DNA of 64,000 nt, from contig OX381708.1 of assembly GCA_947462335.1 (NCBI GenBank), positions 2,108,001 to 2,172,000 on the forward strand, read 5' to 3'. The notes under the pieces were generated by a model. The model saw only the letters and a list, made by a program, of their open reading frames with translations, was not told the origin of the DNA and did no database searches. The DNA comes from Harmothoe impar. Taxonomy: Eukaryota > Annelida > Polychaeta > Phyllodocida > Polynoidae. Below are positions 4,691 to 29,045 of this stretch, piece by piece; the first letter of the stretch is position 1; the number at the start of each line of letters is the position of its first letter. The position numbers were made by a program, and so were the translations under genes.

Positions 4691-5046
4691 CCTAGCCTGT
4701 CCCCTGGCCTGCCTTATCCTAGCCTGTCCTTGCCCTGCCTTTTCCTAGTCTGTTTATTGCCCTGCCTTATCCTAGCCTGAACCCTGCCCTGCCTTATCCT
4801 AGCCTTCCCTTGCCTTGAGCTATCCTAGCCTGTCAACTACCCTGCCTTATCCTAGCCTGTCCTGGAGTCTACCTCATCCTAGCCTGTACCATGCCCTGCC
4901 TTATCCTAGCCTGTCCCCGAGCCTACCTTATCCTATCCTGTCACCTGCCCTACATATCCTAGCCTGTCCCTTGTCCTGCCCTATCCTAGCTTGTCCCCTA
5001 GCCTGCCTTCTCCTAGCATGTTCATTGCCATGCCTTCTCCTAGCCT
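4691..5046. repeat. 27-bp minisatellite, left half
   Basis: Units of about 27 bp with the core CCTGCCTTATCCTAGCCTGT and a variable CCCTTG/CCCCTGG segment. The array resumes in phase at 6871, so it was one array before the retroelement at 5047-6870 landed. The ORFs across it are repeat artefacts. Confidence 0.9.
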
Positions 5047-14400: not shown

Positions 14401-16310
14401 GGGGTAGTGGGTGTGAGGAGGGGGTAGTGGACGTGAGGAGGAGTAGTGGACGTGAGGAGGGGGTAGTGAGTGTGAGGAGGGGGTAGTGGGTGTGAGGAGG
14501 GGGTAGTGGACGTGAGGAGGGGGTAGTGGACGTGAGGAGGGGGTAGTGGGTGTGAGGAGGAAGTAGTGGATGTGAGGACCAGGTAGTGGACGTGAGGAGG
14601 AGGTAGTGGACGTGAGGAGGTGGTAGTGAACGTGAGGAGGAGGTAGTGGACGTGAGGAGGTGGTAGTGGACATGAGGAGGTGGTAGTGGACGTGAGGAGA
14701 TGGTAGTGGACGTGAGGAGGAGGTAGTGGACGTGAGGAGGGGGTAGTGGACGTGAGGAGGAGTTAGTGGACGTGAGGAGGAGGTAGTGGACGTGAGGAGG
14801 AGGTAGTGGACGTGAGGAGGGGGTAGTGGACGTGAGGAGGAGGTAGTGGACGTGAGGACCAGGTAGTGGACGTGAGGAGGAGGTAGTGGACGTGAGGAGG
14901 GGGTAGTGGACGTGAGGAGGAGGTAGTGGACGTGAGGAGGAGGTAGTGGACGTGAGGAGGAGGTAGTGGACGTGAGGAGGAGGTACTAGACGTGAGGAGG
15001 GGGTAGTGGACGTGAGGTGGAGGTAGTGGAAGTGAGGTGGAGGTAGTGGACGTGAGGAGGAGGTAGTGGACGTGAGGAGGAGGTAGTGGACGTGAGGAGG
15101 GGGTAGTGGACGTGAGGAGGAGGTAGTGGACGTGAGGAGGAGGTACTAGACGTGAGGAGGGGGTAGTGGACGTGAGGAGGGGGTAGTGGACGTGAGGAGG
15201 GGGTAGTCGACGTGAGGAAGTGGTAGTGGACGTGAGGAGGGGGTAGTGGACGTGAGGAGGGGGTAGTGGACGTGAGGAGGGGGTAGTGGACGTAAGGAGG
15301 GGGTAGTCGACGTGAGGAAGTGGTAGTGGACTGGAGGAGGGGGTAGTGGACGTGAGGAGGGGGTAGTGGACGTGAGGAGGGGGTAGTGGGTGTGAGGAGG
15401 GGGTAGTGGACGTGAGGAGGAGTAGTGGACGTGAGGAGGGGGTAGTGGGTGTGAGGAGGGGGTAGTGGACGTGAGGATGGGGTAATGGGTGTGAGGAGGG
15501 GGTAGTGGACGTGAGGAGGGGGTAGTGGACGTGAGGAAGTGGTAGTGGACGTGAGGAGGGGGTAGTGGACGTGAGGAGGTGGTAGTGGATGTGAGGAGGT
15601 GGTAGTGGATGTGAGGAGGTGGTAGTGGACGTGAGGAGGGGGTAGTGGACGTGAGGAGGGGGTAGTGGGTGTGAGGAGGGGGTAGTGGACGTGAGGAGGA
15701 GTAGTGGACGTGAGGAGGGGGTAGTGGGTGTGAGGAGGGGGTAGTGGACGTGAGGAGGGGGTAGTGGGTGTGAGGAGGGGGTAGTGGACGTGAGGAGGGG
15801 GTAGTGGACGTGAGGAGGGGGTAGTGGGTGTGAGGAGGGGGTAGTGGACGTGAGGAGGGGGTAGTGGACGTGAGGAAGTGGTAGTGGACGTGAGGAGGGG
15901 GTAGTGGACGTGAGGAGGTGGTAGTGGATGTGAGGAGGTGGTAGTGGATGTGAGGAGGTGGTAGTGGACGTGAGGAGGGGGTAGTGGACGTGAGGAGGGG
16001 GTAGTGGACGTGAGGAGCGGGTAGTGGACGTGAGGAGGGGGTAGTGACGTGAGGAAGAGGTGGTGGACGTGAGGAGGGGGTAGTGGACGTGAGGAAGAGG
16101 TGGTGGACGTGAGGAGGGGGTAGTGACGTGAGGAAGAGGTGGTGGACGTGAGGAGGTGGTAGTACACTTGAGGAGGAGGTAGTGGACGTGAGGAGGGGGT
16201 AGTGGACGTGAGGAAATGGTGGTGGACGTGAGGAGGGGGTAATGACGTGAGGAGGAGGTATTGGACGTGAGGAACAGGTAGTGGACGTGAGGAAATGGTA
16301 GTGGACGTCT
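11440..16310. repeat. Large 20-bp minisatellite, about 240 units
   Basis: A 4.9-kb uninterrupted array of GGAGGTAGTGGACGTGAGGA with variant units (GACC-AGG, GGGGG, GGTGTGAGG, ACTAGACG, GAAGTGAGGTGG). A few 19-bp units shift the register, for instance near 13403, 14442 and 15420. The period is not a multiple of three and has no stop on the minus strand, so all three minus frames read as a 20-residue Ser/Thr/Pro/His repeat for hundreds of codons; the very long minus ORFs here are artefacts. Longer-range order exists: a block at 13400-13690 recurs about 1039 bp later, and a block near 15540-15720 recurs about 340 bp later. The plus strand is strongly purine- and G-rich. Confidence 0.97.
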
Positions 16311-16342
16311 TCTAACATCCACTACCAACTCCTCAACATGCT

Positions 16343-16762
16343 TGATTGATTGTTAGTTAGTTTAACGTCCGGAGGGCAAGTTGCATTCCTCAACACGCAC
16401 TTTTAAGGGCCTCATTCCACACAGTACAGCCCTTTAAGGGTCCCTCGCTCATTTCCCCTGACTTCCCAAGTGCAACCCCCAACCTCCCATCCCCCTTCCC
16501 AGACATTCCCAGTGATATAGGGACAATTATACCACGATTCTGGCGTTTCCCGTGCCGAGAGTGAATATTTGCCGTGCGGTTATCTCAGGATATACGCACG
16601 CTCAGAATTTATTTTCTAGTCCAAGACGTTCCTACATAATAGGACAAGCTATTGAAAGAAAGCCATAGCCATTTAGGCATACGTAATTCAGTTCATGTGG
16701 GAATTGATCCCCGGTCCCGCACGCCATAGGCGAACGACTTACCCCCAGCGCCACAAGGGCTG
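16343..16762 (-). mobile_element. tRNA-derived SINE, near full length
   Basis: Read on the minus strand, the head at 16762-16700 has tRNA promoter boxes: GTGGCGCTGGGGGTAAG (A box) and GGGATCAATTCCC-like (B box). A unique body of about 350 bp follows. The 3' end is GGACGTTAAACTAACTAACA plus a short ATCAATCA tail. The same 3' end, truncated, is present at 39916-39960 in an intron of the GPCR gene, confirming a dispersed family. Confidence 0.75.
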
Positions 16763-16803
16763 GACAATTTGAGTTGAGGAAACCTAAACGTTACCTACCT
16801 TGT

Positions 16804-16868
16804 CGCGCGGCGGCGGCGGCGGCGGCAGGAGCGGCGGCAGGAGCAGCGGCGGAGGCAGGGGGGGGGAC
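16804..16868. repeat. GGC-rich trinucleotide tract
   Basis: Imperfect (GGC)n with GGCAGGAGC interruptions and a poly-G end. The overlapping Ala- or Gly-rich ORFs reflect the repeat. Confidence 0.8.
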
Positions 16869-16912
16869 GCGCGAAATTCACTTGGTAGGAATGGCCACAG
16901 ACAGCATGAGCC

Positions 16913-16980
16913 GAGATGGTCTAGTGGTAACGCGCGAGACTTCAACGCGGCAGGTCCGGGTTCGATTCCCGGCCGATGCC
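16913..16980 (+). other. tRNA-like sequence (SINE head or tRNA pseudogene)
   Basis: TGGTCTAGTGGTAACGC matches the pol III A box and GGTTCGATTCC the B box, with the right spacing and a CCGGG/CCCGG T-stem. The acceptor and anticodon stems do not pair properly, so a functional tRNA is unlikely. The palindrome at 17043-17144 follows closely and could be the body of the same element. Confidence 0.55.
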
Positions 16981-17042
16981 AGAAGCGAAACCGTCGTGAG
17001 TAACCATTTTACGAGGAAATAGTGGTATAAACGCAATAAAGA

Positions 17043-17144
17043 CTTGTTGGGAAAGCACTCGTTCGCTATATAGCCTTAATAATGCACTCGCCTTCGGCTC
17101 GTGCATTATTTGGCGATATAGCTCACTCATGCTTTCCCAACAAG
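17043..17144. repeat. 102-bp near-perfect palindrome
   Basis: CTTGTTGGGAAAGCA at the left end pairs with TGCTTTCCCAACAAG at the right end. Inside, CGCTATATAGCC pairs with GGCGATATAGC, and AATGCACTCGCC pairs around the TTC centre with GGCTCGTGCATT. Only a few mismatches interrupt the stem. It would extrude as a cruciform or fold as a long hairpin RNA; it resembles a foldback-type MITE. Confidence 0.85.
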
Positions 17145-17428
17145 CCATTAGTGCATCACCAACTGACTCCTAACGTGTAATTTTATCGTATTTTGTACGT
17201 ATCCTGTCCGTATCTTCCCTCCAGATGTCTACTATTATTATAAGATACAGTGAAACACCTCCCAGGTGAGTTCTCTGTAGTTACACACATTTCCCTTAAA
17301 CTGTTAGGGAGTTGATTTACTTTTACAAAGAATAATAAGAGTCGTGTCGGTGTTTATATGCAACTTATTATTTTATTGTTTTCTCATAGCAAATAGGTTT
17401 GGCTGGATATGACGCATATATGTAAAGC

Positions 17429-17611
17429 ATGACTGATCTTAAAGACACCTATAAACAACAAGAACATGTTACAATGCATATTTCAAACTTACTCTACACC
17501 ACACTAGAGAACGGAAAACTAGAGGACAGAGAGTCAACACTAGACCCAGCGACGGCAGAGTCACAGGACACAGATGGACTCCCTCTAACTCCTTTATCAA
17601 ACATTGAGTAA
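17429..17611 (+). CDS. Possible orphan ORF, 60 residues
   Basis: The ORF starts MTDLKDTYKQQEHVTMHISN and is hydrophilic and acidic with no low complexity, which is unusual in this repeat-rich stretch. It stops at the TAA that is also the target duplication of the Harbinger MITE beginning at 17612, so the natural 3' end may have been lost. No splice partners were identified. It could be a terminal exon remnant or chance. Confidence 0.25.
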   Translation: MTDLKDTYKQQEHVTMHISNLLYTTLENGKLEDRESTLDPATAESQDTDGLPLTPLSNIE

Positions 17612-17899
17612 GGCCAAATAAAAAAAGGTTTGTTTCAGGTAACATCGGCAGAAAGTCTAGGGTCCTTAAGGCCGGATTTTTTTTTAAACTTTTTTTTTAC
17701 AGCCCCTCTACAATACCCTTTAATTAAACAAAAAAGGTTTAGACATGGGGAAATCTTTTCAAAATTTTGTAAACCTTAAATTGACCCCAAAAAAGTGTAA
17801 AAATGTAAAGAATTCTTCAAAATTGTAATAAAAAGAGTAGGGTCGGCCCTGTTTTGATAGGGTCGGTCGGGTGACCTGAAAGAAACCCTTTTTTTAGCC
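17612..17899. mobile_element. Harbinger-type MITE, copy b (rearranged)
   Basis: Begins TAA|GGCCAAATAAAAAAAGG with TTTGTTTCAGGTAAC and ends GTGACCTGAAAGAAACCCTT plus TTTTTAGCC. An internal CCTTAAGGCCGG suggests a nested or fused second copy. Confidence 0.65.
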
Positions 17900-18210
17900 C
17901 TGACAAAATACTGATTCGTTGATATGCAAAGGTTATTTCTAATACATTGCACCGCGGTGTAGAAATTTGCCATGTATTTTTCCATAAACTGTGGGTGGCC
18001 TCAATGACCCTAGTGTGGTTGATAACTCTAATTACTCTCCACCTCCATCTCACACTCTCTTGTAGAGACAGACTCAAACTGTTGTACTAACTGCATTCTA
18101 CGTGCATTCTATGTGCATTCTGATATATTCGATTTGTCTCAGGAAAGACGGTAAATGGCGCTGTAACAGTTGGGAAAGACGCCATTACCAGAAGACATGC
18201 AGGTTACTAA

Positions 18211-18441
18211 GGCCAAAAAAAAGGTTTGTTTCAGGTCACCTGACCAACCAAATCAAAACAGGGCCGACCCTACGTTTTTTATGCAATTTTGAAGACTTTT
18301 TTTTTGGTCAATTTTAGGGTCTTTGGAGAGACTGGTCAGTACTTTCATGTTTAAAAAAAAAGTTTTAAGAATGAGAAATCCGACCTACCGACCCTACATT
18401 TTCTGCCCATGTTACCTGAAACAAACCGTCTTTTTTGGGCC
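18211..18441. mobile_element. Harbinger-type MITE, copy c
   Basis: GGCCAAAAAAAAGGTTTGTT at the left and AACAAACCGTCTTTTTTGGGCC at the right form the inverted termini. The flanks are a perfect TAA duplication (18208-18210 and 18442-18444). Confidence 0.85.
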
Positions 18442-20684
18442 TAAATAAGGTACAAGAAGCCGATGCCTTAGCCTCTATATATGTGCAGGGTGTTTTTTTT
18501 TGCCACAGCATCCTATGTAGATATAATGTACATGCGACATTCGCATAGGATATACAACCCGTACTAAAAATGCATTGAGATGTACACACAATGGCTCAAA
18601 AAAGATCTATCAAAAATTAATTGCAATTATCATCCGAATTTCATACAGATGATTCTAGATATAGCTGAGAATAAAATATCTGGAGACAATTAGGACATAT
18701 AGACTGGTTATAAGGGATGGGTGGTTTAGCAGGGGTCTGGGGTAAACTGGTAAACTGCTTCTTTACTTTTTTCATTTTGAGTGTGGATTTATTGAGTCTC
18801 TCACAATATACAGAAAAATGGACGATTGAAGTACTATGATAATCAAAATTATGATACAGTGTTAAAAGAAAAGACCTGCATAATTTTATGCGGCCTTCTG
18901 TTTGTTTTATTGGCACCAATTAATAATATTCTGACATACAGTCTATTTATATATGCATGGTGCATTTGAACCTAAAAGAAAGAGGGAGCTCATGCTGAGA
19001 ATGACATAACAAGAGAACAAAGATGTACCAGACACACTCAACCTATCTATACTAGAGCCACTCAAGGCCAAATCATGGGGCAGTGTAGGTGGATACGATT
19101 TTGTATTTTGTAGCTGTTTTATTTGGCTCTTGATTCCTTCATTATGACTTTCTTTGTGAAATGGGAGCGAAAATGGGGTTACAACTAATTAATGAAAACA
19201 ATGTTTGCTTCCTAATCATGCATGGGATGTCTGATGCATTATAACTCATCATAGAATATAGTGCATTCGCATAGAGTTAGTATGGCTAGGCACATTATTG
19301 GTCTCATGTGACGTCACTCTCCATTTGCTTCATTCAGGTTTAAATGCTACATGCTGCATATATTGATTTATGTCAGAATATTGTTCGTTAATGCTAATAC
19401 AACAAATAAGAGGTCGCTTACAATTACGCTGGTCTTTTCTTTTTTAAGATTCAACAGATACATTCAAGAGGGATGAATGTAAAACATGACATTATTGGAC
19501 AGTAATAGGCATGGCATGTCTGAGTCTGAGTCTGAAGTTATTTTATTTATCCTGGAACTCCATATGGGGCCAGACCCCGTCTTGCTGAGTTCCAGCTCAT
19601 GTGGATGACGTGGAGTCGTATCAGTTAAATGGAAATGCTACTTGTCGAGATGATACTGAAATTCTATTGCTATTTGCATGTAACTCAACATTATTTTAGA
19701 TTGATTTATTATCAGATAGAAAATGAAAAGAAATTGACTTGTCACCGAGCTAATTTTCATGATACAGCCATTTGAGCAAATGAATACCTTAATTATAGAA
19801 AAGAATGGGAAAACAGTAGTTTCTCACATTATCGGTCATGGATTATCCCTCTCTATTGCTATATCAACCAAAACTTGGGAATGTTTCATGGGCATCTATA
19901 GGAACATTCCAGATATAAAATACTAAGGGGTCACCGATGAAATAAGAAAGTTATGAATTTTTCAAAAATACTTATTTTGCCTTAACTATAGGATGCTATG
20001 GGTGTCCCAGTGACTAATAAATGCCATACACACAGGTATAATCTCTGGATGGCAAATAAAATGGTTGGTTAAGGGAAAGTACCATACATTGAATACAAAT
20101 TTAGCCAAAAGAAGAATTTCATTAGTATTGATTTTTGCCACCAGGTGGCCTATGTGTAGGAACCGGCATTTCCCTTTAACCATGAGTCATCACCCTGCAA
20201 TGTTAGTCCTAACCACTCTCCCAATCTCATGGGCCGCAACTGATGCTATTTACCGCATTCCCATGACCCACTTATTATATAGTTGGAGGGTCCATCACTA
20301 GGCACCCTACACTGGTGACCTGTATATGGTTCTATGTTATATTTTGCTCCCCCACTGGGCTGTGGCTATGGAGGTCAGTCTCGCAGTAAAGTTGGTGAAA
20401 GCCAGAGGGGGGGACTTTGTTAAAAGAGGCTGTGCAATTAGTTGAATATTCATTGGTGTATTCTGGATACCATGAACACTATTCATTATGCCTAATGATA
20501 ATTATGTGACCTTTCAATGAATTTAAATGCATGTATTTTCGCCACAATGCAATGCTCAAAGCAGATGGGGGACTTCTAGTGACAGACCCTTATTCTATAA
20601 TACCCACCCAACCACAAAGAATGTGCTTGGCGATGTAGGTTCATGCCCTTGCCCAATCTGGACTGCTGACATAAAGACTAGGTT
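18442..20684. other. Intergenic; retroelement 3' end at about 19517-19630
   Basis: No gene recognised. At 19517-19630 the minus strand reads like the 3' end of a CR1/L2-type non-LTR element: AATAAAATAACT followed by (TCAGAC)3, a hexamer tail like that of the element at 5047. The rest is AT-rich with no coding signal. Confidence 0.5.
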
Positions 20685-20860
20685 AAAGTGACATGGCCCG
20701 ATGATTCGGGCTCAAAAATTAATTTTCTTTAAAATGACCCAGAATGTTCCCATGGCCATACTGGACTTGCTACCTACTTGATATAATTTCATTCACTAGG
20801 ATTAAGCTACTGCAGAATAGAAGGCCTGTTGATCAGGAAAAAGTGTCGGGTCATGTCATA
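20685..20860. mobile_element. Short MITE related to 63303-63674
   Basis: Starts AAAGTGACATGGCCCGATGA, continues with TCAAAAATTAATTTT, and ends with the inverted counterpart CGGGTCATGTCA. The copy at 63303-63674 shares the terminal motif and the first 60 or so bases. Confidence 0.5.
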
Positions 20861-20935
20861 ATTTAGACTCTTTTAGAGTAAGTTTTGCCAAATTAATTGG
20901 TCCATTCTATTGTTTATCAAGTGAACAGTGACATG

Positions 20936-21377
20936 AGTAGTATATATTGTATCGGAACTGGACTATGCTTAAGTACTGTTTATTACTCACTCGATATGCA
21001 GCCAATCATGGGCCTCCATTTGGTCACATGACCCGTTGCCATGGTAACGTGACCTACTTAGGACTCTCAGCCAATTAGAAGCCAGCATTCTGGGTGACCT
21101 ACTGACCTACTTAGAAGCTCTCAGCCAATCAGAGGCCGGCATTCTGGTAACCATGGCAACGTGACCTACTTACATCACGTGACCTACTTAGGCTCAGCCA
21201 ATCAGAAGCAAGCATTCTGGTAACTATGGTAACATGACCTACTTAGGGTTTAGTTTGTAAACAACACCACGTGGCTCTCTTGTTTGTAAACAACACCACG
21301 TGACACGTGACTGTTTGTAAACAAACAAAAAAAAAGTTATATAACTTATATATAGAAATAAAAACACAACAAGATAA
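20936..21377 (+). repeat. Polinton left terminal inverted repeat
   Basis: Matches the reverse complement of 28591-29039 with scattered indels. It is built of internal sub-repeats, each combining GACCTACTTAGG, a CAGCCAATCAGA CCAAT box and CAGCATTCTGG, most followed by an RFX-like palindrome (GTTGCCATGGTAAC at 21035, GTAACCATGGCAAC at 21147, GTAACTATGGTAAC at 21220). CACGTG E-boxes and TTTGTAAACAA forkhead-like strings follow near the inner end. The innermost part is AT-rich (TTATATAACTTATATATAG). Confidence 0.95.
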
Positions 21378-21431
21378 TTTCTTTTTTTTTCATTTTATTC
21401 TTATTTTCATTTCAATCAAAAAAACACAAGT

Positions 21432-21734
21432 TTATGCTTTTTTAGTTTGCTTCTTCGATTTGCAACCGAACAGGCCGCAAAGTCTCACGCCGCCGTCACT
21501 CGCACCACACCTCTGACGTCCTCTCTCCAATAGACATTGCACGACTTTGGATAAATCCAACACTATTTCGGCAAGGCAGAGAATTTTTGCTTCCATGAAA
21601 CGTCCGCCATCGCAACAACCTGTTTTTTCTGTCACAACATCATCATCGATAGCTTCTGACTCACTGTCCGGTCGCTCAGCTTTGGGATTTTGCTCATTCG
21701 CATGGCGCACTTCTTGGGGTTTCTTGTTCGACAT
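21432..21734 (-). CDS. Small Lys-rich ORF overlapping the protease 3' end
   Basis: A 100-residue minus-strand ORF starting MSNKKPQEVRHANEQN. Its first 103 nt overlap the protease in another frame. It has an acidic stretch (SESEAIDDD), six cysteines and a basic end (KSKKQTKKA). It occupies exactly the space between the protease stop and the inverted repeat, which argues for function, but no family was recognised. Shared use of sequence with the protease means part of its apparent coding quality may be a shadow. Confidence 0.4.
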   Translation of the reverse strand: MSNKKPQEVRHANEQNPKAERPDSESEAIDDDVVTEKTGCCDGGRFMEAKILCLAEIVLDLSKVVQCLLERGRQRCGASDGGVRLCGLFGCKSKKQTKKA

Positions 21735-22084
21735 GCTTCAATTAGGAAATGAACGCAATGAGGTCCACAGGTGTCAGCAGAAGTGTCTTGTAGTTGAGCG
21801 CGGTTTCTTTGCCACTTGAACGGAGCAGAGCGTTCCACGAAAGACAAGAACTCCGCACTCAGCGGCGGTAAGCCGAAGGAATCAAAGTAGTACACTTCAC
21901 CCGTGCTCGACACGTAAAACGCTACCCAATGCTGACCTGGTAAATGTTGCGGATCTGTGTTGCTCACGAAACAAGTGTCTTTGATAGGGTGCTTCGGAAT
22001 AGTGTCACAAGAGAAAACACCTAGGAAACGATGTTTTGTGTGAACGTTTTCCTTCAACACTCTACTTATTTCAAGCGTATTCAT
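21632..22084 (-). CDS. Adenovirus-type cysteine protease of Polinton
   Basis: 150 residues. Adenain/Ulp1-fold maturation protease, which in relatives cleaves capsid precursors inside the particle. Visible catalytic set: His52 in QHWVAFY, Asp68 in YYFDSFG, Gln99 in QLQD (oxyanion position) and Cys106 in DTCGPHC. The N-terminus MNTLEISRVL followed by FLGVFSCDTIP is typical of Polinton proteases. I chose the Met at 22084 rather than the longer frame to 22273: the upstream 63 residues overlap the capsid gene and are low-quality, and 22084 lies just after the capsid stop at 22114. It is shorter than adenovirus protease (about 200 residues), as usual for Polintons. The frame is intact with all catalytic residues. 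A TTATAAGAG string at 22252-22260 could be a promoter. Confidence 0.9.
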   Translation of the reverse strand: MNTLEISRVLKENVHTKHRFLGVFSCDTIPKHPIKDTCFVSNTDPQHLPGQHWVAFYVSSTGEVYYFDSFGLPPLSAEFLSFVERSAPFKWQRNRAQLQDTSADTCGPHCVHFLIEACRTRNPKKCAMRMSKIPKLSDRTVSQKLSMMML

Positions 22085-22113
22085 ACGATACGCTAAGTAC
22101 TGCTGTCTTGTCT

Positions 22114-23421
22114 TCAGTTCATGTGGTAGTCGGTGATGGGATGTCGATCTCTGGTCAGCTCGACGACGTTGTCGTACACCAAGTAGAGTAGCACCGTTGT
22201 TGTCGCTTGTAGCGCCGAGCGGAAACTGACTTCCACCCTCAGCTGACCCGCTCTTATAAGGTTCACGCGACACCCGTCGTGCGATCTGTCTGGGGTTAAA
22301 TCGAGGGGGAACACCGTGTAACCGTTCAGGAATTGCTCATATGAAATACCACAGGAGCGCGCGCCCTCGTACATCCACGTTTCCGTGTGTAGCGCCAAGT
22401 ACTCTCTCACGGCCGCTTTGGTTTTAAAGTCGGGCACGTAAGCGTCGTTCGGCACCTTCTGATCGTTCACTACCACTTGAAGTGAGCTGATGTCGTAATG
22501 CTTCATCTCGAACGGGTTCTTGTTGTAGCTACCGTTGAAGGCGTCGTGGTCCAGGAAGCAAATCATCATTGACTTGGGAAGCTGGCCTGTGTTGGAGTGC
22601 GTGTAGGTGTGATCTCTGTTACCTTGAGGGATGGCGTACGTCGTCACCTCCACTCTGTTCACCGGGTAGTCGAAGGGGCCGTGTTCTATCACTGCTCTTT
22701 CGTGCGTTTCTGCTACAGCGTCCGCCACCAACACACGTCGCACGTAGAGCTTTGCTTTGTAGATCTTCAATTTGTAGCCTGCGTCAGGGGCGCACATCAG
22801 ATAGAAAGAGGGCGCTGCCTGTTTCAGAGTGAGATTGATTTCTGTCTCTCCAACGATGAGCTTCGGTTGATGAGCCAGGTCAAAGTGCAGTCGCGCCATC
22901 AGCGAAAAGCGCTGGTTGGAGATTAGCTTCCTGCGCGCAACGTACCCCGCATTCTCGTTAGTCAACGTGTCAAACTGACCAGGCGTATCTTCATGCCACC
23001 CCATGGCGCTCATGATGCCGCGCTTCATGTCTTTGTTGTAGTTGAGTAACCCTTCCAAGTAAGCTCGGTAAGGGTAGGTCTCGGTGTTGCCAGACACTTT
23101 GAAACCGCCGATGGAGACTTGGACGTCTTTGAAGAGCGAGTGAGCCAAGTTGTTCACCGGAGCTACCGCGTCGGTGTCCTCTAGCGCCGCTCCGTTCGCT
23201 TTCAGCACTTGACATTCCCGATGAAGGTAATTCTCGTTCAGGTCTGTGTACTCTTGCGACTTGTTGTTGGTGAAATTTATGTTACCTCCATCCTCTAAAG
23301 AGTTCTTTGTTTCTATCCCGAGGAAAGACGACTTTAAGATAGTAGTCTGAGTCGGCGCTACGGTGTGCAGGTCGAGTTCAGAGAGCGCGCATTCGTTACT
23401 GCTCTCGTGTACGTAAGCCAT
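22114..23421 (-). CDS. Polinton major capsid protein (double jelly-roll)
   Basis: 435 residues, frame intact. The N-terminal SELDLHTVAPTQTTI (about residues 14-28), followed by YTDLNENYLHRECQVLKANG and then LAHSLFKDVQVSIGG and ETYPYRAYLEGLLNY, is the signature order of the Polinton capsid protein family (the proteins annotated in animals as F54H12.2-like), which forms the pseudo-hexameric capsomers of the virion. The length is normal for the family. The start ATG at 23421 follows a TATA-like TATAAATAAAAAGACC about 50 nt upstream. The protease gene begins 30 nt after the stop. Despite being in a host genome the reading frame is undamaged, so the insertion is young or the gene is maintained. 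Confidence 0.92.
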   Translation of the reverse strand: MAYVHESSNECALSELDLHTVAPTQTTILKSSFLGIETKNSLEDGGNINFTNNKSQEYTDLNENYLHRECQVLKANGAALEDTDAVAPVNNLAHSLFKDVQVSIGGFKVSGNTETYPYRAYLEGLLNYNKDMKRGIMSAMGWHEDTPGQFDTLTNENAGYVARRKLISNQRFSLMARLHFDLAHQPKLIVGETEINLTLKQAAPSFYLMCAPDAGYKLKIYKAKLYVRRVLVADAVAETHERAVIEHGPFDYPVNRVEVTTYAIPQGNRDHTYTHSNTGQLPKSMMICFLDHDAFNGSYNKNPFEMKHYDISSLQVVVNDQKVPNDAYVPDFKTKAAVREYLALHTETWMYEGARSCGISYEQFLNGYTVFPLDLTPDRSHDGCRVNLIRAGQLRVEVSFRSALQATTTVLLYLVYDNVVELTRDRHPITDYHMN

Positions 23422-23468
23422 TGTGTTCTCTCTTCACGCTGACGACAGACTGACGCCGGCCACCTCCA

Positions 23469-23486
23469 GGTCTTTTTATTTATACC
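23469..23486 (-). promoter_or_regulatory. TATA-type promoter of the capsid gene
   Basis: Minus-strand GGTATAAATAAAAAGACC, about 50 nt before the capsid ATG. The same motif, with two or three changes, stands before the ATPase (26037-26052), suggesting a shared late-promoter element. Confidence 0.55.
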
Positions 23487-23504
23487 TAAGCGCCTAGGCG
23501 CTTA
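23487..23504. terminator. Perfect 18-bp palindrome at the minor capsid stop
   Basis: TAAGCGCCTAGGCGCTTA is self-complementary. It contains the TAA stop of the minor capsid gene (23502-23504) and abuts the capsid-gene TATA box. Hairpins at transcript ends are known for some large eukaryotic DNA viruses; a 3'-end or processing role here is inference. Confidence 0.45.
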
Positions 23505-23910
23505 CCGGTCGAATACATCTCCTCTACGTCTCTTGCAAGAGCCACCGCCCGTCTGAGGAGAACGCCGGCGACGTTTCGACCCTTTCTTAGACGCGCCAGT
23601 TTTCTTTCCTCCTGAGAACGCCGTACTCGCCAGACTCTTCAGAGCGCCTGCGCCTCAGTCTTTCACGCTGCTCTTTAAAGTCCGACCCGCCAGCACATCT
23701 TTAGCTACACCCACACTGGCGCGGAGCAGCGTTTTTCCCACTGTCTTCAATAGCCGGGTAGCCGAGAGCGCCACCAAAACCGTGCCCGCTCTGGAAAGAG
23801 CGCCCGCTGTACACGTTGATGCCGTTGCCCAGCTGCGCGTTGTAGTAATCGCTGTACCCTCTGCCGACGGTGCGCTTGGGTGGAAAGTACGGAACGCGTA
23901 CACGCATCAT
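23502..23910 (-). pseudogene. Polinton minor capsid/core-like protein, frameshift plus stop
   Basis: From ATG 23910 the frame encodes an Arg/Tyr/Gly-rich N-terminus (MRVRVPYFPP, then YYNAQLGNGINVYSG and GHGFGGALG). Around 23750-23770 the coding sense moves to another frame, which carries LLKTVGKTLL and KDVLAG, motifs of the small basic virion proteins found beside the capsid gene in Polintons and adintoviruses. A TGA at 23655-23657 then interrupts; after it the same frame continues with a very basic tail (SKRRRRSP) to a TAA at 23502. So there are two breaks: one indel and one nonsense codon. All other family genes here are intact, making this the main sign of decay. A programmed frameshift is possible for the first break but would not explain the TGA. 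Confidence 0.8.
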
Positions 23911-23995
23911 TTTTTCTTTGTTTTAGCGCTCAATAGGTCTCAGATGAAGCGTCACGGTCACCTCGCCTCTACTGAATGGGGTGGAATGGCCGGAT

Positions 23996-24012
23996 CGGTC
24001 TCTTAAATAGAT
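23996..24012 (-). promoter_or_regulatory. TATA-like element before the minor capsid gene
   Basis: Minus-strand CTATTTAAGAGACC, about 90 nt upstream of ATG 23910. Confidence 0.35.
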
Positions 24013-24114
24013 GCCGACCTCGGTCAACCTCTTGGAAATAATCCAAATGGTGAAAACTGATAGCTTGCCCGCCGGTCTGTTCGCCGTCTTCCTGAACCTG
24101 GCGGCGTCGCTCAG

Positions 24115-24795
24115 TTATTCCACTATGTTGATGTGACGCTCAGGTTGTATTCTCCGACCCGACATCTCGCGCACCGCACCGTCCTCGTTCCACTTGACCA
24201 GACCGGATTTCTCCAATTTCTTGTACAGCGCAGCGGTCCGGATATGATTCCTCTTGGGAACTTGGTTCACTAACCGCTCAAGTAGGGACGCGCTGGCTTC
24301 TTCAGCAGACTGACGGAGGTGAGCCGGTGGCGAAGAAGTGTAGGATGAAGAGATGTTGCTGTTGTTGGGATTCGCAAGAAAAAATTGCAATCTATTCAAC
24401 AACCTTCGGTATTTCAACATTTTCTCGCTCGATTCCAAAGTGGGATTGTTCAACACTAAGTCCAAGTCCCTGTAGATAAACTGTAGCACCTGGTGCAATG
24501 CCGCGTTGGGATGAAGGGATTGTTCTGCCTGCTTGTGGTAATAGGCCATATCGGTAGGTAGGCGGGCGGCGGTGGCAGGGGTGAAACTCTCGTTCTTTTC
24601 ACTACGCTCATCAGGAAGAGGAGGAAGGTTTGGAGCAGTAGAAGTACTAGCAGCAGCGACTGCAGTAGTAGCAGCGCTACTACTAGCAGCAGTGGGCACA
24701 TGATGAAGTAGACCTGCTCGTGATGATTTGTAGAGCGTCTCAGGATCCACGAGCGCTAAGCGTTTGTAGTGTTGTTGCTGCTCTGAGTCTGTCAT
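24115..24795 (-). CDS. Polinton late protein of unknown function
   Basis: 226 residues from the Met at 24795 (MTDSEQQQHYKRLALVDPET). An upstream ATG at 24876 gives 27 extra Thr/Ala-rich residues, but a TATA box at 24891-24899 would place transcription start near 24866, after that ATG, and LALVDP near the N-terminus fits the family pattern I remember. The middle is low complexity (Ser/Ala/Thr) and then helical. The C-terminus LLERLVNQVPKRN, KLEKSGLVKWNEDGAV and INIVE matches the conserved tail of a protein found beside the capsid genes in Polintons and adintoviruses: a helix, a xxWNxxGxV segment, then NIVxL. Its role is unknown, probably structural or assembly. It ends just before the minor capsid gene's promoter region. 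Confidence 0.7.
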   Translation of the reverse strand: MTDSEQQQHYKRLALVDPETLYKSSRAGLLHHVPTAASSSAATTAVAAASTSTAPNLPPLPDERSEKNESFTPATAARLPTDMAYYHKQAEQSLHPNAALHQVLQFIYRDLDLVLNNPTLESSEKMLKYRRLLNRLQFFLANPNNSNISSSYTSSPPAHLRQSAEEASASLLERLVNQVPKRNHIRTAALYKKLEKSGLVKWNEDGAVREMSGRRIQPERHINIVE

Positions 24796-24872
24796 AGGGG
24801 CGACGGTGGCGATGGCGCTGGCGGTGGTGGTAGGGGTGGTAGTGTCGGCGAGTAGGTGTCGAATGAGGTGTC

Positions 24873-25205
24873 TCATATACGGAGAATGCTCTTTATAAGC
24901 GGTAAGGCCATCCCTATGAGAGCCGGAATGAGGAAACCTCCCTCTTGTACCAAGACGCGTCTCTTTTTTTTTATGGGAGTAGATTTTTTGCCGACCTCCC
25001 TCAACACGTCAGCCGATTCTCGAAGCTTGTCCAGTTGTTTGTCGCTGAGCGGGATGTTCCCTATGAGTAAATTGTGACAGATCTCACTCAACGCTGCGAT
25101 CAGATCGTCGCTTCCAGAGTCTATTAAATGCGAGCAGTCCTTTGGCGAGCACTTAGCTAAGTGCTTGAGAGTGCCAAAGTGTCTTTCGAGTAGATGAGAA
25201 GCCAT
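24873..25205 (-). CDS. Polinton small hydrophobic-tail late protein
   Basis: 110 residues. The C-terminal third has the family hallmark: a GNIPLSDKQLDKLR helix (about 49-62), a basic run KKKRRVLVQEGGF (79-91), then a Pro-containing hydrophobic tail LIPALIGMALPLIKSIL (92-108). Small proteins with this IPLS/basic/QxGGFL/hydrophobic layout accompany the capsid genes in many Polintons and adintoviruses, and are thought to be virion or membrane-active proteins comparable to small adenoviral core or lytic peptides; that role is inference. ATG at 25205, 8 nt after the ATPase stop, suggesting one transcript with it. Its last 4 nt overlap the longer form of the next gene. Confidence 0.8.
   Translation of the reverse strand: MASHLLERHFGTLKHLAKCSPKDCSHLIDSGSDDLIAALSEICHNLLIGNIPLSDKQLDKLRESADVLREVGKKSTPIKKKRRVLVQEGGFLIPALIGMALPLIKSILRI
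24889..24900 (-). promoter_or_regulatory. TATA box for the late protein at 24795
   Basis: Minus-strand GCTTATAAAGAG. It lies inside the 3' end of the neighbouring small gene and only about 15 nt before ATG 24876, which is why the downstream Met is preferred. Confidence 0.5.
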
Positions 25206-25212
25206 TTTGCTA

Positions 25213-25929
25213 CTACTTTCTCTTGTTCTTTTTTTTGTCTAGCGGTACAAATACTAGCTGAGAGTTTATGGCTGTCAAAGAGGAGCGTATTCTCAGATCG
25301 TCAGGTGTTGACTGCTTGAAGTCCAGAAGGAGGTATGAGTGAGGCCGCTTGAGTTCATGGGTAAATATACTAGAGAGGGCCGCCGCGTTGGAGGGAAACA
25401 CCTGGCGAGACAGACTAGCTATTTGCCCCATGTCGCGCGGGTTCTTGAAAACGATCATGTAGTGAGCGTTCAGACTCATAGTTCGAAAGTCGGGTGATTC
25501 CTGGAATAGGTTCTGAGTGATATATATGACGCTCACGTTCCAGTGATGGGAGTATTTAGTAAAGATGTCAGCTACCACTTGCTGATTGGAACTACTCATC
25601 AGATCGTCCAATATCAGTAGAGTGTGTGGTCGTAAAGCGTCTTCTGCTACTTCCACGTCTCCCGCTATAGACTCTTTGCTAGGAAGACCTTCTCTGAATT
25701 CCACACCGTACTGATTTTGCATGTTTTCAAACAGAGGTTGCCACTCGCCGTAATGGTAAAAAGTCTTTTCCACCGGCGGCGTGACCAAATTGTTCACGTC
25801 GCTCAGAAATTGATCCACCAAGCGCGATTTTCCACAACCCGACGGACCGCTTATGATACAACTAAAGGGTCCTTGTAGTCGAGCGTCGAAATGAATTTCT
25901 GTGAAGAGTTTGCTTTTACTACTCGACAT
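25213..25929 (-). CDS. FtsK/HerA (A32-like) DNA-packaging ATPase
   Basis: 238 residues from the ATG at 25929; the six codons before it begin with GTG. Walker A GPSGCGKS is at 28-35, Walker B LLILDD at 104-109, and SVIYITQNLF at about 133-142 is the Gln/Asn sensor segment typical of A32-type packaging ATPases. The enzyme pumps the genome into the preformed capsid. Size and motif spacing are normal for Polintons and the frame is intact. A TATA-like AATAAAAAGG stands about 110 nt upstream. It heads the run of minus-strand morphogenesis genes. No DNA polymerase or integrase lies upstream, where autonomous Polintons often carry them. Confidence 0.93.
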   Translation of the reverse strand: MSSSKSKLFTEIHFDARLQGPFSCIISGPSGCGKSRLVDQFLSDVNNLVTPPVEKTFYHYGEWQPLFENMQNQYGVEFREGLPSKESIAGDVEVAEDALRPHTLLILDDLMSSSNQQVVADIFTKYSHHWNVSVIYITQNLFQESPDFRTMSLNAHYMIVFKNPRDMGQIASLSRQVFPSNAAALSSIFTHELKRPHSYLLLDFKQSTPDDLRIRSSLTAINSQLVFVPLDKKKNKRK

Positions 25930-26036
25930 TTTAGTTTTTTTCAGCACGCGTCAGAGAGTAGTTGTGTGTCTGACTGTCTGCTGTGTTTCGCACTCGAACG
26001 TTCGGTAGTGAATGGTTGTGGAGAAAAGTCAGCGGA

Positions 26037-26052
26037 CCTTTTTATTGATACC
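26037..26052 (-). promoter_or_regulatory. TATA-like promoter of the ATPase gene
   Basis: Minus-strand GGTATCAATAAAAAGG, matching the capsid-gene element GGTATAAATAAAAAGACC. Confidence 0.5.
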
Positions 26053-26141
26053 GGACGGTGTCACAGTAGCGGCGGCAGAAGTGTCTTTTTTTTCTTTTTA
26101 TTTTTGCGATAAATTCTATTTTCACTCAATAGTCATAAATG

Positions 26142-26174
26142 TTTGTATCAGACTCCAGAGGAGTCTGATACAAA
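26142..26174. terminator. Perfect 15-bp-stem hairpin with poly-T
   Basis: TTTGTATCAGACTCC, a 3-nt AGA loop, and its exact complement, followed on the plus strand by a long T run. It lies between the ATPase promoter and the 3' end of the ORF at 26255-26548. Two smaller stems follow: GATCAA/TTGATC at 26233-26252 and GGCAAAGC/GCTTTGCC at 26258-26278. Together they look like a 3'-end or insulating hairpin cluster. Confidence 0.5.
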
Positions 26175-26254
26175 TTTTTTTTTTTTTTAAAAGAAGAGGA
26201 GGAGGAGGAGGGGAGGAGGAGAGAAAAGCGCAGATCAATCTTTTTTTTGATCAT

Positions 26255-26548
26255 TTAGGCAAAGCTCGTCGCTTTGCCGCTTTTTTTTCTTTTTCTGTGT
26301 TGTGACACGATCGTCTCGAAAAAGCAATAAGGAGTGCGAGCGCGGCGGTGACAAATACATATTGGAGCGTATGGTTTAAAATAGTGCGTCCCTATCTTCT
26401 TCAATTCGGCTGCGTTGTAATATGCGGGATAACAAGTGACGACGTCGAAACGTTTAGAGACTGTGTTCACGTCGGCCACAACGCGCGCCCACCGAGTGGG
26501 AGCTGCAGTCACTCCCAAAAAACCGATCGGCTTGTCGAATCGTTTCAT
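26255..26548 (-). CDS. Unrecognised Polinton ORF, 97 residues
   Basis: Starts MKRFDKPIGFLGVTAAPTRW, has a Cys/His-containing middle (PICICHRRAR) and a basic C-terminus (QHRKRKKSGK) that could be a nuclear localisation signal. A TTATAAAG TATA box lies at 26563-26571, about 20 nt before the ATG, slightly closer than usual. The stop sits beside the hairpin at 26258-26278. Codon content is ordinary, not low complexity, and the ORF stands alone with promoter and hairpin-like 3' signals, so I think it is a real gene. No family recognised. It occupies the part of the element where replication genes would be expected, but shows no polymerase or nuclease motif. Confidence 0.5.
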   Translation of the reverse strand: MKRFDKPIGFLGVTAAPTRWARVVADVNTVSKRFDVVTCYPAYYNAAELKKIGTHYFKPYAPICICHRRARTPYCFFETIVSQHRKRKKSGKATSFA

Positions 26549-26562
26549 AGCGCTTATTCTCA

Positions 26563-26573
26563 CTTTATAAGAG
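26563..26573 (-). promoter_or_regulatory. TATA box upstream of the 97-residue ORF
   Basis: Minus-strand CTCTTATAAAG. Confidence 0.4.
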
Positions 26574-26697
26574 GAGGCAGGGTGAGGGGAGTAGCAGCGC
26601 TCTTTCTTTTCATGAAACGCCCAACGCGTGGGGGCGCTGAGAGCGGCTATTATGCCATGGTGGAGTAAATACTGTTCTGAGAAGACGGCTCTCGGCC

Positions 26698-26943
26698 ATG
26701 TCGCTACGTTTTCCTTTTCCGCTCTTGTATAACGATGATTTCTTTGGCACTCGGCTTTGCTTTTCTCGAGAATTCGGAACGCTTCAAGAGAAGCGTGAAC
26801 CTCAACTATGTGACGCTCTCTCCTTTGAGATAAAAAATAGCCGGGCAGTTGAGGAGGGCACTTTGTTCGCGTGTCCGTCTTTTAAAAACTCGCGCCCTCT
26901 GCGGCGCCATATTTCTTTCCTCCGAAAAAAAAAGACTGAGTGA
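26698..26943 (+). CDS. Doubtful plus-strand ORF, 81 residues
   Basis: Starts MSLRFPFPLLYNDDFFGTRL in the context GGCCATGTC. It is ordinary in composition with a basic end. No TATA box was found upstream, and a minus-strand ORF overlaps it, so the coding strand of this 300-bp stretch is uncertain. Confidence 0.25.
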   Translation: MSLRFPFPLLYNDDFFGTRLCFSREFGTLQEKREPQLCDALSFEIKNSRAVEEGTLFACPSFKNSRPLRRHISFLRKKKTE

Positions 26944-26997
26944 AAATAAAAATTTTAAAACAAAAAGCTCAAAGAAAATAATAAGCAATAAGCAGAC

Positions 26998-27168
26998 TCA
27001 GCTCGAAATTTCCTGCTGGCGTGTAAGTGTAGCGGTAGTAGTGTTGGCGGTGACGGTAGGGGCGGCCGGGTGACTGCCGGCGGTGGCGGCGGTCGGCTGG
27101 CCGGCGGTGGCGGTGACGGCGCCGATGGCGGTGGCGGTGGTAGAAGGGTGTGTGGAAAGAGAATGCAT
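26998..27168 (-). CDS. Short Thr/Ala-rich ORF with its own TATA box
   Basis: 56 residues (MHSLSTHPSTTATAIGAVTA...QEISS). CCTATAAAAGACTG lies immediately before the ATG at about 27170-27184. The protein is simple (Thr, Ala, Pro, Gly). A Thr/Ala-rich stretch of the same flavour precedes the late protein at 24795, so this may be a mobile low-complexity segment rather than a gene. Confidence 0.3.
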   Translation of the reverse strand: MHSLSTHPSTTATAIGAVTATAGQPTAATAGSHPAAPTVTANTTTATLTRQQEISS

Positions 27169-27489
27169 CTCAGTCTTTTATAGGAGCGACGAGAGTTCGA
27201 CTTAGTCTGACATTTTCAGCTGTCGCATGCTGACCTGCTGCTATCATAAGAGAAACAAAAGCCCTAATCACGCTTTTCAGCTGGATCCTTCCACCCACCA
27301 GTCATGGATCCAGATGGGAGGGTGGTTTAAAATTAATCCATGTACCGACTGTCATACAATAGTGTAATTAGTTGAACGTGTGTTACCTGTATAAAGGATT
27401 AGGAGGTCATGGGCTTAGAGTGTGTATAGAAAACAACTACAGGTAGCGTGAACAAAGCCGCCCCCTCCCTTTCTGTCACTCTGTCTGTG

Positions 27490-27668
27490 ACTAGAGGGTG
27501 CGCGTGTGGTAAGCGACTTAAATCTAAAGAAAAAAAATCACCCTCTCCTGTAGTCAGCAGTCAGCTGGCCGGCGGCTGGAAAATGTGATTAGAGGGGTGA
27601 GCGCGTAGTAAGTGACTTAAGGCTAATCTAAAGACCTGCCGTGAGTGGGCAGCTGGCCGGTGGCTTGA
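27490..27668 (+). promoter_or_regulatory. Duplicated upstream region of the Ala-rich gene
   Basis: Two imperfect direct copies of about 90 bp (27490-27581 and 27583-27668), each containing ACTAGAGGG/ATTAGAGGG, a GTAAGyGACTTAA string, TCTAAAG and CAGCTGGCCGG (an E-box with flanks). They sit just upstream of the TATA box at 27709, as expected for an enhancer or upstream activating block. Confidence 0.5.
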
Positions 27669-27707
27669 AAAAAGGGGGGAGTCGCCGCCCTACCGCCGCG
27701 GAGTAAG

Positions 27708-27718
27708 GGTATATAAGG
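27708..27718 (+). promoter_or_regulatory. TATA box of the Ala-rich gene
   Basis: GGTATATAAGG, about 115 nt before ATG 27828. The predicted leader carries (CAT)n and (CTA)n trinucleotide runs. Confidence 0.6.
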
Positions 27719-27827
27719 GGGAGTGAAACCGTCTTCATCATCATCATCATCATCATCATCATTCTCTCTACTACTACTACTACTACAACTACTACTACCA
27801 CCACCACGCCTCAATTTGCAGATCACC

Positions 27828-28493
27828 ATGATGGAATGTTACGACCGTAACATGAAGTGGTATGATGAAGCAGCACGCGAATGTGAAGCTGCTGCTGTAG
27901 CCGCTGCTACTGCTGCTGCTAGTGCTGCTCATCGTGCTACTGCTGCATTTACTGCGGCTGTTAGTGACGCTGGTTGTGATGGCGTTGTTGTTGTTGCCGC
28001 TGCGGCTGTGACTGCTGCTGTTGCTGCTGCCGATGCAGCTACTAATGCCGCCGATGCCGACGCTGCTGCTGCTGATGCTGTTGCGGCTGCCGATGTCGCC
28101 GCTGATGTCGCTGCTGATGTTAGGACTGCTGCTGCTAGTGTACGCTCTGTTGCCCTTGCTACTGCCGCTGCTGCTGTTGTTGCTAATGCTCACGCTACTG
28201 CTGCTGCCGCTGCTGCTGCTGCTGCTGCCGCTGCTGCCGATGCTGCTGCCGCTGATGCTGATGCTGCTGATGCTGCTGCTGATGCTGCTGATGCTGCTGA
28301 TGCTGCTGATGTTAGTAGTCGCGTCGACAAAGAATCGTCATTTGTCACACTTAAGCCTCCAGTTGAATGCGCGACAGGTAGTAGGGCTACCAACGCGACG
28401 GCCAGGTGGTGCAAATGGTGTCGTCGCTTCTGCTCGTGCTCTTGCTTTTCTTCCTGCCCTACCTGCTGCTGCTACAGTATAATAGTGTTATAG
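27828..28493 (+). CDS. Alanine-rich protein with Cys-rich tail, Polinton right arm
   Basis: 221 residues from ATG 27828 (context GATCACCATGATGG). A frame extension to 27723 has only a GTG and lies in the (TCA)n leader. The first 20 residues (MMECYDRNMKWYDEAARECE) are a normal amphipathic helix. Then about 150 residues are dominated by Ala with periodic Asp (AADAADAAD), and the end is Cys/Trp-rich (WCKWCRRFCSCSC). The long GCT/GCC/GAT runs show trinucleotide expansion. It is the only plus-strand gene of the element with a clear TATA box and duplicated upstream block, transcribed away from the late genes, so an early or accessory role is possible. No family recognised. Translation of a simple repeat is the alternative explanation. 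Confidence 0.5.
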   Translation: MMECYDRNMKWYDEAARECEAAAVAAATAAASAAHRATAAFTAAVSDAGCDGVVVVAAAAVTAAVAAADAATNAADADAAAADAVAAADVAADVAADVRTAAASVRSVALATAAAAVVANAHATAAAAAAAAAAAAADAAAADADAADAAADAADAADAADVSSRVDKESSFVTLKPPVECATGSRATNATARWCKWCRRFCSCSCFSSCPTCCCYSIIVL

Positions 28494-28590
28494 TGTTTGA
28501 ATGAGAACGCGCGTACTTACACATAGACACTGTAAACAGATGTGCTTTTTTTTGAAAATATAATTTTAGCATAACATGAAAAAAATGAAA

Positions 28591-29039
28591 ATATCTTGTT
28601 GTGTTTTATTTTCTATATATAAGTTATATAACTTTTTTTTTGTTTACAAACAAAACACGTCACGTCACGTGTCACGTGGTGTTGTTTACAAACGAGAGAG
28701 CCACGTGGTGTTGTTTACAAACAAACCCTGAGTAGGTCATGTTACCATAGTTACCAGAATGCTGGCTTCTGATTGGCTGAGCCTAAGTAGGTCACATGAC
28801 GTAAGTAGGTCACGTTACCATGGTTACCAGAAATGCCGGCCTCTGATTGGCTGAGAGCTTCTAAGTAGGTCAGTAGGTAACCCAGAATGCTGGCTTCTGA
28901 TTGGCTCAGAGTCCTAAGTAGGTCACGTTACCATGGCAACGGGTCACGTGACCAAATGGAGGCCTCTGATTGGCTGCATATCGAGTGAGTAATAAACAGT
29001 ACTTAAGCATGGTCCCGTTCCGATACAATATATACTACT
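28591..29039 (-). repeat. Polinton right terminal inverted repeat
   Basis: Inverted partner of 20936-21377. It carries GTTACCATAGTTAC (28741), GTTACCATGGTTAC (28814) and GTTACCATGGCAAC (28927), four CTGATTGGCT inverted CCAAT boxes (about 28770-28973) and several CACGTG sites. Differences from the left copy are mostly single bases and short indels, so the two ends have diverged little. Confidence 0.95.
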
Positions 29040-29045
29040 GACATG

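What the first reader, a model, noticed from the sequence alone, without database searches (positions are those of the whole stretch)
20930..29045. Complete 8.1-kb Polinton with a capsid module but no polymerase or integrase
Seen: matching AGTAGTATATATTG ends, about 445-bp inverted repeats, perfect GACATG duplication, and ATPase, protease, major capsid and late-protein genes, five of six intact. Known: Polintons/Mavericks and adintoviruses carry protein-primed PolB and an RVE-type integrase and are 15-20 kb. Neither is found here in any frame. Inference: this is a reverse satellite that brings its own shell and packaging motor but borrows replication and integration. Typical satellites and virophages do the opposite with capsids or polymerases. 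Intact ends and duplication show it was mobilised at this size or deleted after insertion.
Basis: partly seen in the sequence, partly recalled or inferred. Interest (0 to 1): 0.92.

Follow-up and report, generated by a model that had tools for sequence, protein, structure and literature searches.

The report
Deleted copy of a polymerase-less Polinton
The element is one damaged copy of an abundant virus-like transposon that carries shell, packaging and integration genes but no DNA polymerase, and the same genome holds a second abundant family with very similar ends that carries the polymerase but, as far as it was read, no shell genes, so the two look like halves of one split virus.

Summary
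The ends, inverted repeats, 6-bp duplication, capsid genes and absence of PolB and integrase are real. But the integrase loss is private to this copy: one 2.46-kb deletion (junction 24067-24073) fused a truncated gene to the last ~50 codons of the penton, and 1 of 40 scored genome matches spans that junction. So this copy has no complete capsid module either.

The host genome (1.51 Gb) shows what it came from. Family A: 20 of 20 copies fetched by their ends carry MCP and protease, 18 integrase; the only PolB match lies in a nested element. Ten copies with both ends measured are 10.3-10.9 kb, nine with perfect 6-bp duplications. Lack of PolB thus marks a mobile lineage.

Family B: 9.8-10.0 kb, PolB but no capsid, ATPase, protease or integrase match in the one copy read end to end. 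Its terminal 98 bp match A's at 85-95 of 98, depending on the copy. Forty scored copies of a 1.2-kb PolB probe are ~99% identical. Family F, with PolB, integrase and ATPase (capsid end not read), shares 11 terminal bp.

Best reading: A and B are complementary halves of a split (bipartite) Polinton. Trans-complementation is inferred, not shown.

The parts
20936..29039 (.). whole element, 8,104 bp, a deleted copy of Polinton family A (10.3-10.9 kb)
20930..20935 (+). left target-site duplication GACATG
29040..29045 (+). right target-site duplication GACATG
20936..21380 (+). left terminal inverted repeat; close relatives of its first 98 bp recur at the ends of family B
28590..29039 (-). right terminal inverted repeat
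21632..22084 (-). adenain-like cysteine protease (Peptidase_C5), open
   Evidence: E 3.3e-5
22114..23421 (-). major capsid protein, double jelly roll, 435 aa, open, with private changes at conserved sites
23505..23910 (-). small basic core-like protein gene, broken by one frameshift and one stop
   Evidence: N-terminal part of P0024
23926..24067 (-). 3' remnant of the penton-like gene (last ~50 of ~362 codons, one frameshift near 24035)
24067..24073 (.). deletion junction with 7 bp matched by both sides; about 2.46 kb (integrase, penton 5' part, P0002 tail) missing
24074..24876 (-). P0002-family gene, cut off by a stop at 24115-24117 and by the deletion
24873..25205 (-). pX-like small virion protein (name recalled), open, 110 aa
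   Evidence: matches in L001 and L002; 15 of 16 family copies examined without frameshift or internal stop
25213..25929 (-). packaging ATPase (IVa2/A32-like), open
25951..28570 (.). right region without detectable gene, with simple repeats; its first kb (R1) matches 14 of 20 family A stretches over its whole length at 92-96%

Best explanation
The window element is a defective copy of Polinton family A. Shown: A is a high-copy, PolB-less element of about 10.5 kb (TIR-protease-MCP-core-penton-integrase-P0002-pX-ATPase-noncoding-TIR) that inserted repeatedly with 6-bp duplications; this copy lost 2.46 kb, integrase included, by one deletion between 7-bp matches. Shown: family B is a PolB-carrying element of 9.8-10.0 kb, capsid-less in the copy read end to end, whose terminal 98 bp are close to A's. 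Inferred: A and B are complementary halves of one split Polinton. B's protein-primed polymerase replicates both from the shared ends, and A's integrase and particle proteins serve both.
For: Deletion: 1 of 40 scored matches (724 candidates) spans the junction; the other 39 cover only the P0002 side, from 24067 on. The interval missing here measures 2,248-2,496 bp in 17 of 18 copies and 5,442 in L016; integrase is present in 18 of 20 copies. Mobile PolB-less A: right ends fetched for 13 of 20 copies, 10 gave both ends, 10,296-10,867 bp, 9 of 10 with identical 6-bp duplications; the only PolB match in 20 ten-kb stretches lies in the element nested in L020, and none in 13 right ends. Between copies pN/pS is 0.58-0.61 (MCP), 0.33-0.52 (ATPase), 0.37-0.38 (protease), 0.21-0.43 (pX), as if these genes were used while the lineage spread. 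B: 9,799 bp, duplication TACACC, PolB, and no match inside it to MCP, penton, ATPase, protease, integrase or pX (E 1e-3 in L020, 1e-2 in L039); a second copy in L022 with PolB DNA 96.7% identical over 2.5 kb; 40 scored matches of 99-100% to a 1.2-kb PolB probe, 1,463 candidates; in 5 further copies 6 of 10 predicted ends found, one copy with both (10,028 bp, GCCCTG twice). Ends, first 98 bp: A left-B left 92, A right-B left 95, A right-B right 93, against A left-A right 93 and A left-F 35.
Against: No function was tested. The TIR search scored 40 of 2,118 candidates and was led by A's own left TIR, so a one-piece parent with PolB plus capsid under the same ends could be missed. Only one B copy was read end to end; capsid genes unlike those used as queries could be missed there. 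The shared end is less alike in other B copies: 89-92 of 98 to A's left end in five, 86.7% in L022, and 91.8% for A left against the other end of the first copy. Family F carries PolB and could serve A instead. Integrase and penton show weak or no purifying signal (pN/pS 0.46-0.79 and 0.81-1.58), and many A copies are broken (MCP without frameshift or internal stop in 7 of 18). PolB of the fully read B copy is itself interrupted (1,091- and 244-aa frames).
Confidence: 0.6

Rival explanations
1. A is a satellite of family F: it brings its own capsid, packaging and integrase genes and borrows F's polymerase. B is a separate passenger.
For: F has PolB frames of 1,309-1,379 aa in 33 scored places, 32 of 33 without stops (7,097 candidates); flanks of three copies 99.4-99.6% identical; integrase, ATPase and pX matches in the two copies read further upstream. 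It looks recently active and so was at hand.
Against: The one F end seen shares the first 11 bp with A and 35 of the first 98, whereas the compared B ends share 85-95 of 98. Protein-primed initiation is origin-specific in known systems (recalled).
Confidence: 0.2
2. A and B are two internal-deletion families of one full-length Polinton that still exists, unsampled, under the same ends; neither half helps the other.
For: Only 40 of 2,118 TIR candidates were scored; internal-deletion families are the usual non-autonomous form of DNA transposons (recalled).
Against: No A-plus-B element turned up in the 20 A stretches fetched, apart from B elements nested in A copies; A keeps coding genes with pN/pS below 1 for MCP, ATPase, protease and pX, which plain hitch-hikers would not need.
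Confidence: 0.18
3. One reading: an 8.1-kb lineage without PolB and without integrase, mobilised at this size.
For: Intact ends and GACATG duplication.
Against: Junction spanned by 1 of 40 scored matches; family copies carry integrase (18 of 20) and the ten measured are 10.3-10.9 kb.
Confidence: 0.02

Closest known systems
Polintons/Mavericks (including adintoviruses)
   Same: [quoted passage not shown] same order of this gene block as L001 from a tubeworm MAG.
   Different: Family A has no PolB and is 10.3-10.9 kb; PolB sits in a separate element with similar ends. The window copy also lacks integrase and nearly all of the penton.
Meldvirus genomes without PolB and integrase, Buck and colleagues (PMC11071296, passages read)
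   Same: Genomes with adenovirus-class virion proteins and no recognisable PolB and integrase had already been noted, there and, as cited there, in Starrett et al. 2021 (not seen).
   Different: The passages shown do not describe a partner element with shared ends that carries the PolB; family A keeps integrase.
Bidnaviridae (segmentation mentioned in PMC11071296; the rest recalled)
   Same: A PolB virus group with genes on separate segments in some members.
   Different: Parvovirus-type capsid; no integrase (recalled); not known to me as high-copy genomic elements of this kind.
Satellite phages Mulch and Flayer (PMC10690885, start of abstract in a search listing only)
   Same: Satellites described there as encoding encapsidation genes while depending on a helper.
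   Different: Bacteriophage system; no homology tested.

Membership tests
Polinton/Maverick | TIRs and 6-bp target-site duplication | tested here: met
   window; family A: 9 of 10 perfect, 1 of 10 with one mismatch
Polinton/Maverick | double-jelly-roll MCP, packaging ATPase, adenain-like protease | tested here: met
Polinton/Maverick | penton | tested here: not met
   window: 3' remnant only. Family A: match to P0031 in 19 of 20 stretches. Identity as penton rests on position and recalled motifs; its fold prediction failed (pLDDT 40)
Polinton/Maverick | RVE-family integrase | tested here: not met
   absent in the window copy; present in 18 of 20 family copies
Polinton/Maverick | protein-primed PolB | tested here: not met
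   absent in the window copy and in the family A copies sampled
   8.1 kb here; 10.3-10.9 kb in ten family A copies
Adintovirus as defined in PMC11071296 | PolB with OTU-like domain plus hexon recognisable by BLASTp | tested here: not met
   no PolB; hexon fold present, but BLASTp against the reference adintovirus hexons was not run
Bipartite virus | two complementary elements with common ends | tested here: met
   A and B: complementary genes, ends 85-95 of 98, several B copies; the B interior was read fully in one copy
Bipartite virus | replication and packaging in trans, joint transmission | not testable with these tools
   no expression, particle or biochemical data

The most novel reading that the evidence does not exclude
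A bipartite Polinton: a particle-and-integration element (A) and a polymerase element (B) with common ends that have spread together to high copy in one genome (probably an animal's; species not known here). It would be a segmented member of a group thought to be single-piece, with both segments integrated and countable.
Probability: 0.5. Interest if true: 0.88.

Novelty: new variant of a known kind. Interest (0 to 1): 0.75.

Why it matters
If right, it shows that a Polinton can split into two independently mobile, mutually dependent parts, a step between transposon and multipartite virus and a natural case of division of labour between selfish elements. Because both parts lie in the genome in many insertions that can be compared and dated, the order of events (split, spread, decay) can be read directly. 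It also warns that a Polinton copy without polymerase or integrase should not be called a satellite before its family has been read.

Tried and rejected
Compact integrase-less lineage: rejected, the junction is spanned by 1 of 40 scored matches. PolB remnant in 25951-28570: no Pfam hit and no useful match to L001 PolB; the 208-aa stop-free frame at 26255-26881 is longer than expected (1 of 300 simulations reach it), but its codon score is weak, it has no Pfam match, and its homologues were not searched for; left unexplained. TIR mismatch as an age: not used. The right TIRs of L018 and L023 match the window's right TIR at 97.8% and its left TIR at 94.0-94.5%, so part of the left-right difference is older than the insertion; in the other 6 of 8 copies compared the right TIR was not closer to the window's right TIR. 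Penton fold: prediction poor, not searched further; PDB profile hits to A3 make no sense (best E 0.0049, EGFR). B's frame of at least 496 aa as a relative of F's 512-aa frame: no similarity. IMG/VR scans with ATPase, MCP profile, penton profile and the TIR end: nothing. Phage records with the MCP: nothing.

Literature searches: (one found no paper). None of the titles and abstract starts listed describes a bipartite Polinton; several lists were capped. The library holds open-licence PMC papers only. I read passages of PMC4028283 (and its section 4), PMC8097293 and PMC11071296, and the outline with abstract of PMC11071308; of all others I saw the listing only.

Full report
Observation. The element spans 20936-29039, has GACATG on both sides and TIRs of about 445 bp, about 95% identical. 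Genes on the minus strand: ATPase (Adeno_IVa2 E 2e-5), Peptidase_C5 protease (E 3.3e-5) and an MCP. The MCP has 23 homologues at E up to 0.001, a confident model and Foldseek matches to PBCV-1, SGIV, Sputnik and mavirus capsid proteins (best E 1.2e-15). PolB and integrase were not found (positive control).

What is broken. A 49-residue part of the frame 23926-24114 found six proteins (E 3e-12 to 8e-8, five of them 359-388 aa and one 256 aa). It is the 3' end of a penton-like gene whose first 300 or so codons are missing from the window. The 253-aa ORF 24115-24876 has homologues of 287-395 aa, 5 of 5 longer; homology continues past its stop at 24115-24117 and ends near 24068, where penton sequence begins. 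The small gene between penton and MCP has a frameshift and a stop.

Relatives. A scan of GTDB contigs with the MCP profile returned four loci in bacterial MAGs, three of them in bins of animal symbionts; I take them as animal contamination (inference). L001 (Escarpia laminata symbiont bin) has PolB (1409-aa frame, open at the contig end)-ATPase-pX-P0002-like-integrase (rve plus chromo)-penton-core-MCP-protease; the P0002 match is weak in sequence (E 0.004) and rests also on position. L002 (Bathymodiolus symbiont bin) also has integrase between the P0002-like gene and the penton. So the window's missing interval is where integrase belongs.

Family A in the host genome. The window is G000:C5:2108001-2172000. 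A TIR search gave 2,118 first-look candidates, 40 scored, 39 of them other places at 95-97%. I fetched 10 kb inward from the first 20 of these 39 in list order. All 20 match protease and MCP; 18 match integrase. L032 lost the middle, and in L020 integrase is split by another element. The interval missing from the window measures 2,248-2,496 bp in 17 of 18 copies and 5,442 in L016. PolB matched in 1 of 20 (L020), inside the nested element. The window's right region R1 matched over its whole length in 14 of 20. I fetched right ends for 13 of the 20, leaving out rearranged copies: 10 gave both ends, 10,296-10,867 bp; the duplications agree exactly in 9 and with one mismatch in 1; CCCCAC occurs at two places. 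In L015 the right TIR matched from base 4 only; L014 and L029 showed no right TIR in the stretch. No PolB, integrase or capsid match in the 13 right ends.

The window's junction. A 301-bp probe over the junction gave 40 scored matches of 724 candidates. Only the window spans it; the other 39 cover the P0002 side alone, beginning at probe base 138, that is 24067. A spanning copy would outscore these 162-164-bp matches, so it should have been listed (inference). The two halves overlap by 7 bp. Whether the deletion arose before or after insertion cannot be told.

Selection. Without frameshift or internal stop: MCP 7 of 18, protease 14 of 19, ATPase 7 of 14, pX 15 of 16, penton 12 of 19, integrase 9 of 15 copies that matched over at least 85%. 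pN/pS in pairs within and between two subgroups: MCP 0.61 and 0.58, protease 0.38 and 0.37, ATPase 0.52 and 0.33, pX 0.43 and 0.21, integrase 0.46 and 0.79, penton 0.81 and 1.58. I assigned the subgroups from the match pattern.

Family B. In L020 an element starts with an A-like end at oriented base 4304; its other end lies in L039. Length 9,799 bp, duplication TACACC on both sides, own TIRs of about 1.0-1.1 kb, 89% alike. It has PolB (39% to L001, in two frames of 1,091 and 244 aa in this copy) and a frame of at least 496 aa that reaches the edge of the stretch. Inside it there is no match to MCP, penton, ATPase, protease, pX or integrase (E 1e-3 in L020; 1e-2 in L039); integrase and P0002 matches in L020 and L039 lie outside it, in the interrupted A copy. 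Pfam gave no capsid or integrase hit in the six of its frames that I scanned. A second B copy sits in L022 and has PolB, 96.7% identical over 2.5 kb. A 1.2-kb PolB probe gave 40 scored matches of 99-100%, of 1,463 candidates (only the best are scored). For 5 of these I fetched 500 bp at each predicted end: 6 of 10 ends found, at least one in each copy, 89-92 of 98 to A's left end; one copy has both ends (10,028 bp, GCCCTG twice). The interior of these five was not read.

Ends. First 98 bp, ungapped: A left-A right 93, A left-B left 92, A right-B left 95, A right-B right 93, B left-B right 96, A left-F 35 with the first 11 identical. Lower values: A left-B right 91.8%, A left-L022's B 86.7%.

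Family F. A search with L001 PolB scored 33 places of 7,097 candidates; 32 without stops, 31 in frames of 1,364 aa. Flanks of three copies are 99.4-99.6% identical; the element ends about 1,969 bp after PolB in ...TATACTACT. Upstream of two copies: ATPase, pX, P0002-like and integrase matches; in one copy scanned, a DUF5662 protein (E 2e-21). The capsid end and the other terminus were not fetched.

Reading. What the genome adds is the complementary PolB family with similar ends. Steps shown: A lacks PolB and moves; B has PolB, lacks the particle genes where read, and moves; ends shared. Steps inferred: B's PolB copies A, A's integrase inserts B, both are packed in A's particles. Prior art: 46 of 72 Polintons had full-length MCPs, and nine without MCP also lacked protease and ATPase (PMC4028283); virion-gene genomes lacking PolB and integrase were noted (PMC11071296). 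I found no report of a paired split, within an open-licence library and capped lists.

Limits. Scored matches are the best 33-40 of many; sampling was led by A's left TIR; host species unknown; no function tested.

Noticed in passing
L013-L032 (penton stretch): Between two A subgroups the penton has 22.5 nonsynonymous against 2.5 synonymous near-fixed differences, unlike MCP (6.0 against 3.0), ATPase (0 against 1) or protease (none); it could reflect selection on the vertex protein.
   Followed up: no
G000 PolB family F: L033-L038, L040, L041: A PolB-, integrase- and ATPase-bearing Polinton family with flanks 99.4-99.8% identical between the copies compared, i.e. a recent burst; one copy scanned carries a DUF5662 protein.
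   Followed up: partly
L032, oriented base 6485 onward: A further element with nearly the same terminal 98 bp (94% to B) but almost no other similarity to B in 3.5 kb: perhaps a third family using these ends.
   Followed up: no
L039:2638-3198 (-), inside family B: A 187-aa frame with a sub-threshold Death-domain match (E 0.0031, 18.0 bits against cut-off 22.6).
   Followed up: no
L003 and L004: PolB lies downstream of the protease on the other strand, unlike L001 where it precedes the ATPase: two Polinton layouts.
   Followed up: no
L002:4586-5472: A second integrase-like stretch upstream of the ATPase; no PolB match by tblastn in L002 nor by Pfam in the stretches scanned (1-4900 both strands, 11701-21268 minus strand).
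   Followed up: partly
L013, L022, L024: Tandem partial duplications inside family A copies.
   Followed up: no
window 26255-26881 (-): A 208-aa stop-free frame, longer than chance (1 of 300 simulations), without Pfam match.
   Followed up: partly
window 11445-16308: 4.9-kb array of a 20-bp G-rich minisatellite, 244 copies.
   Followed up: no
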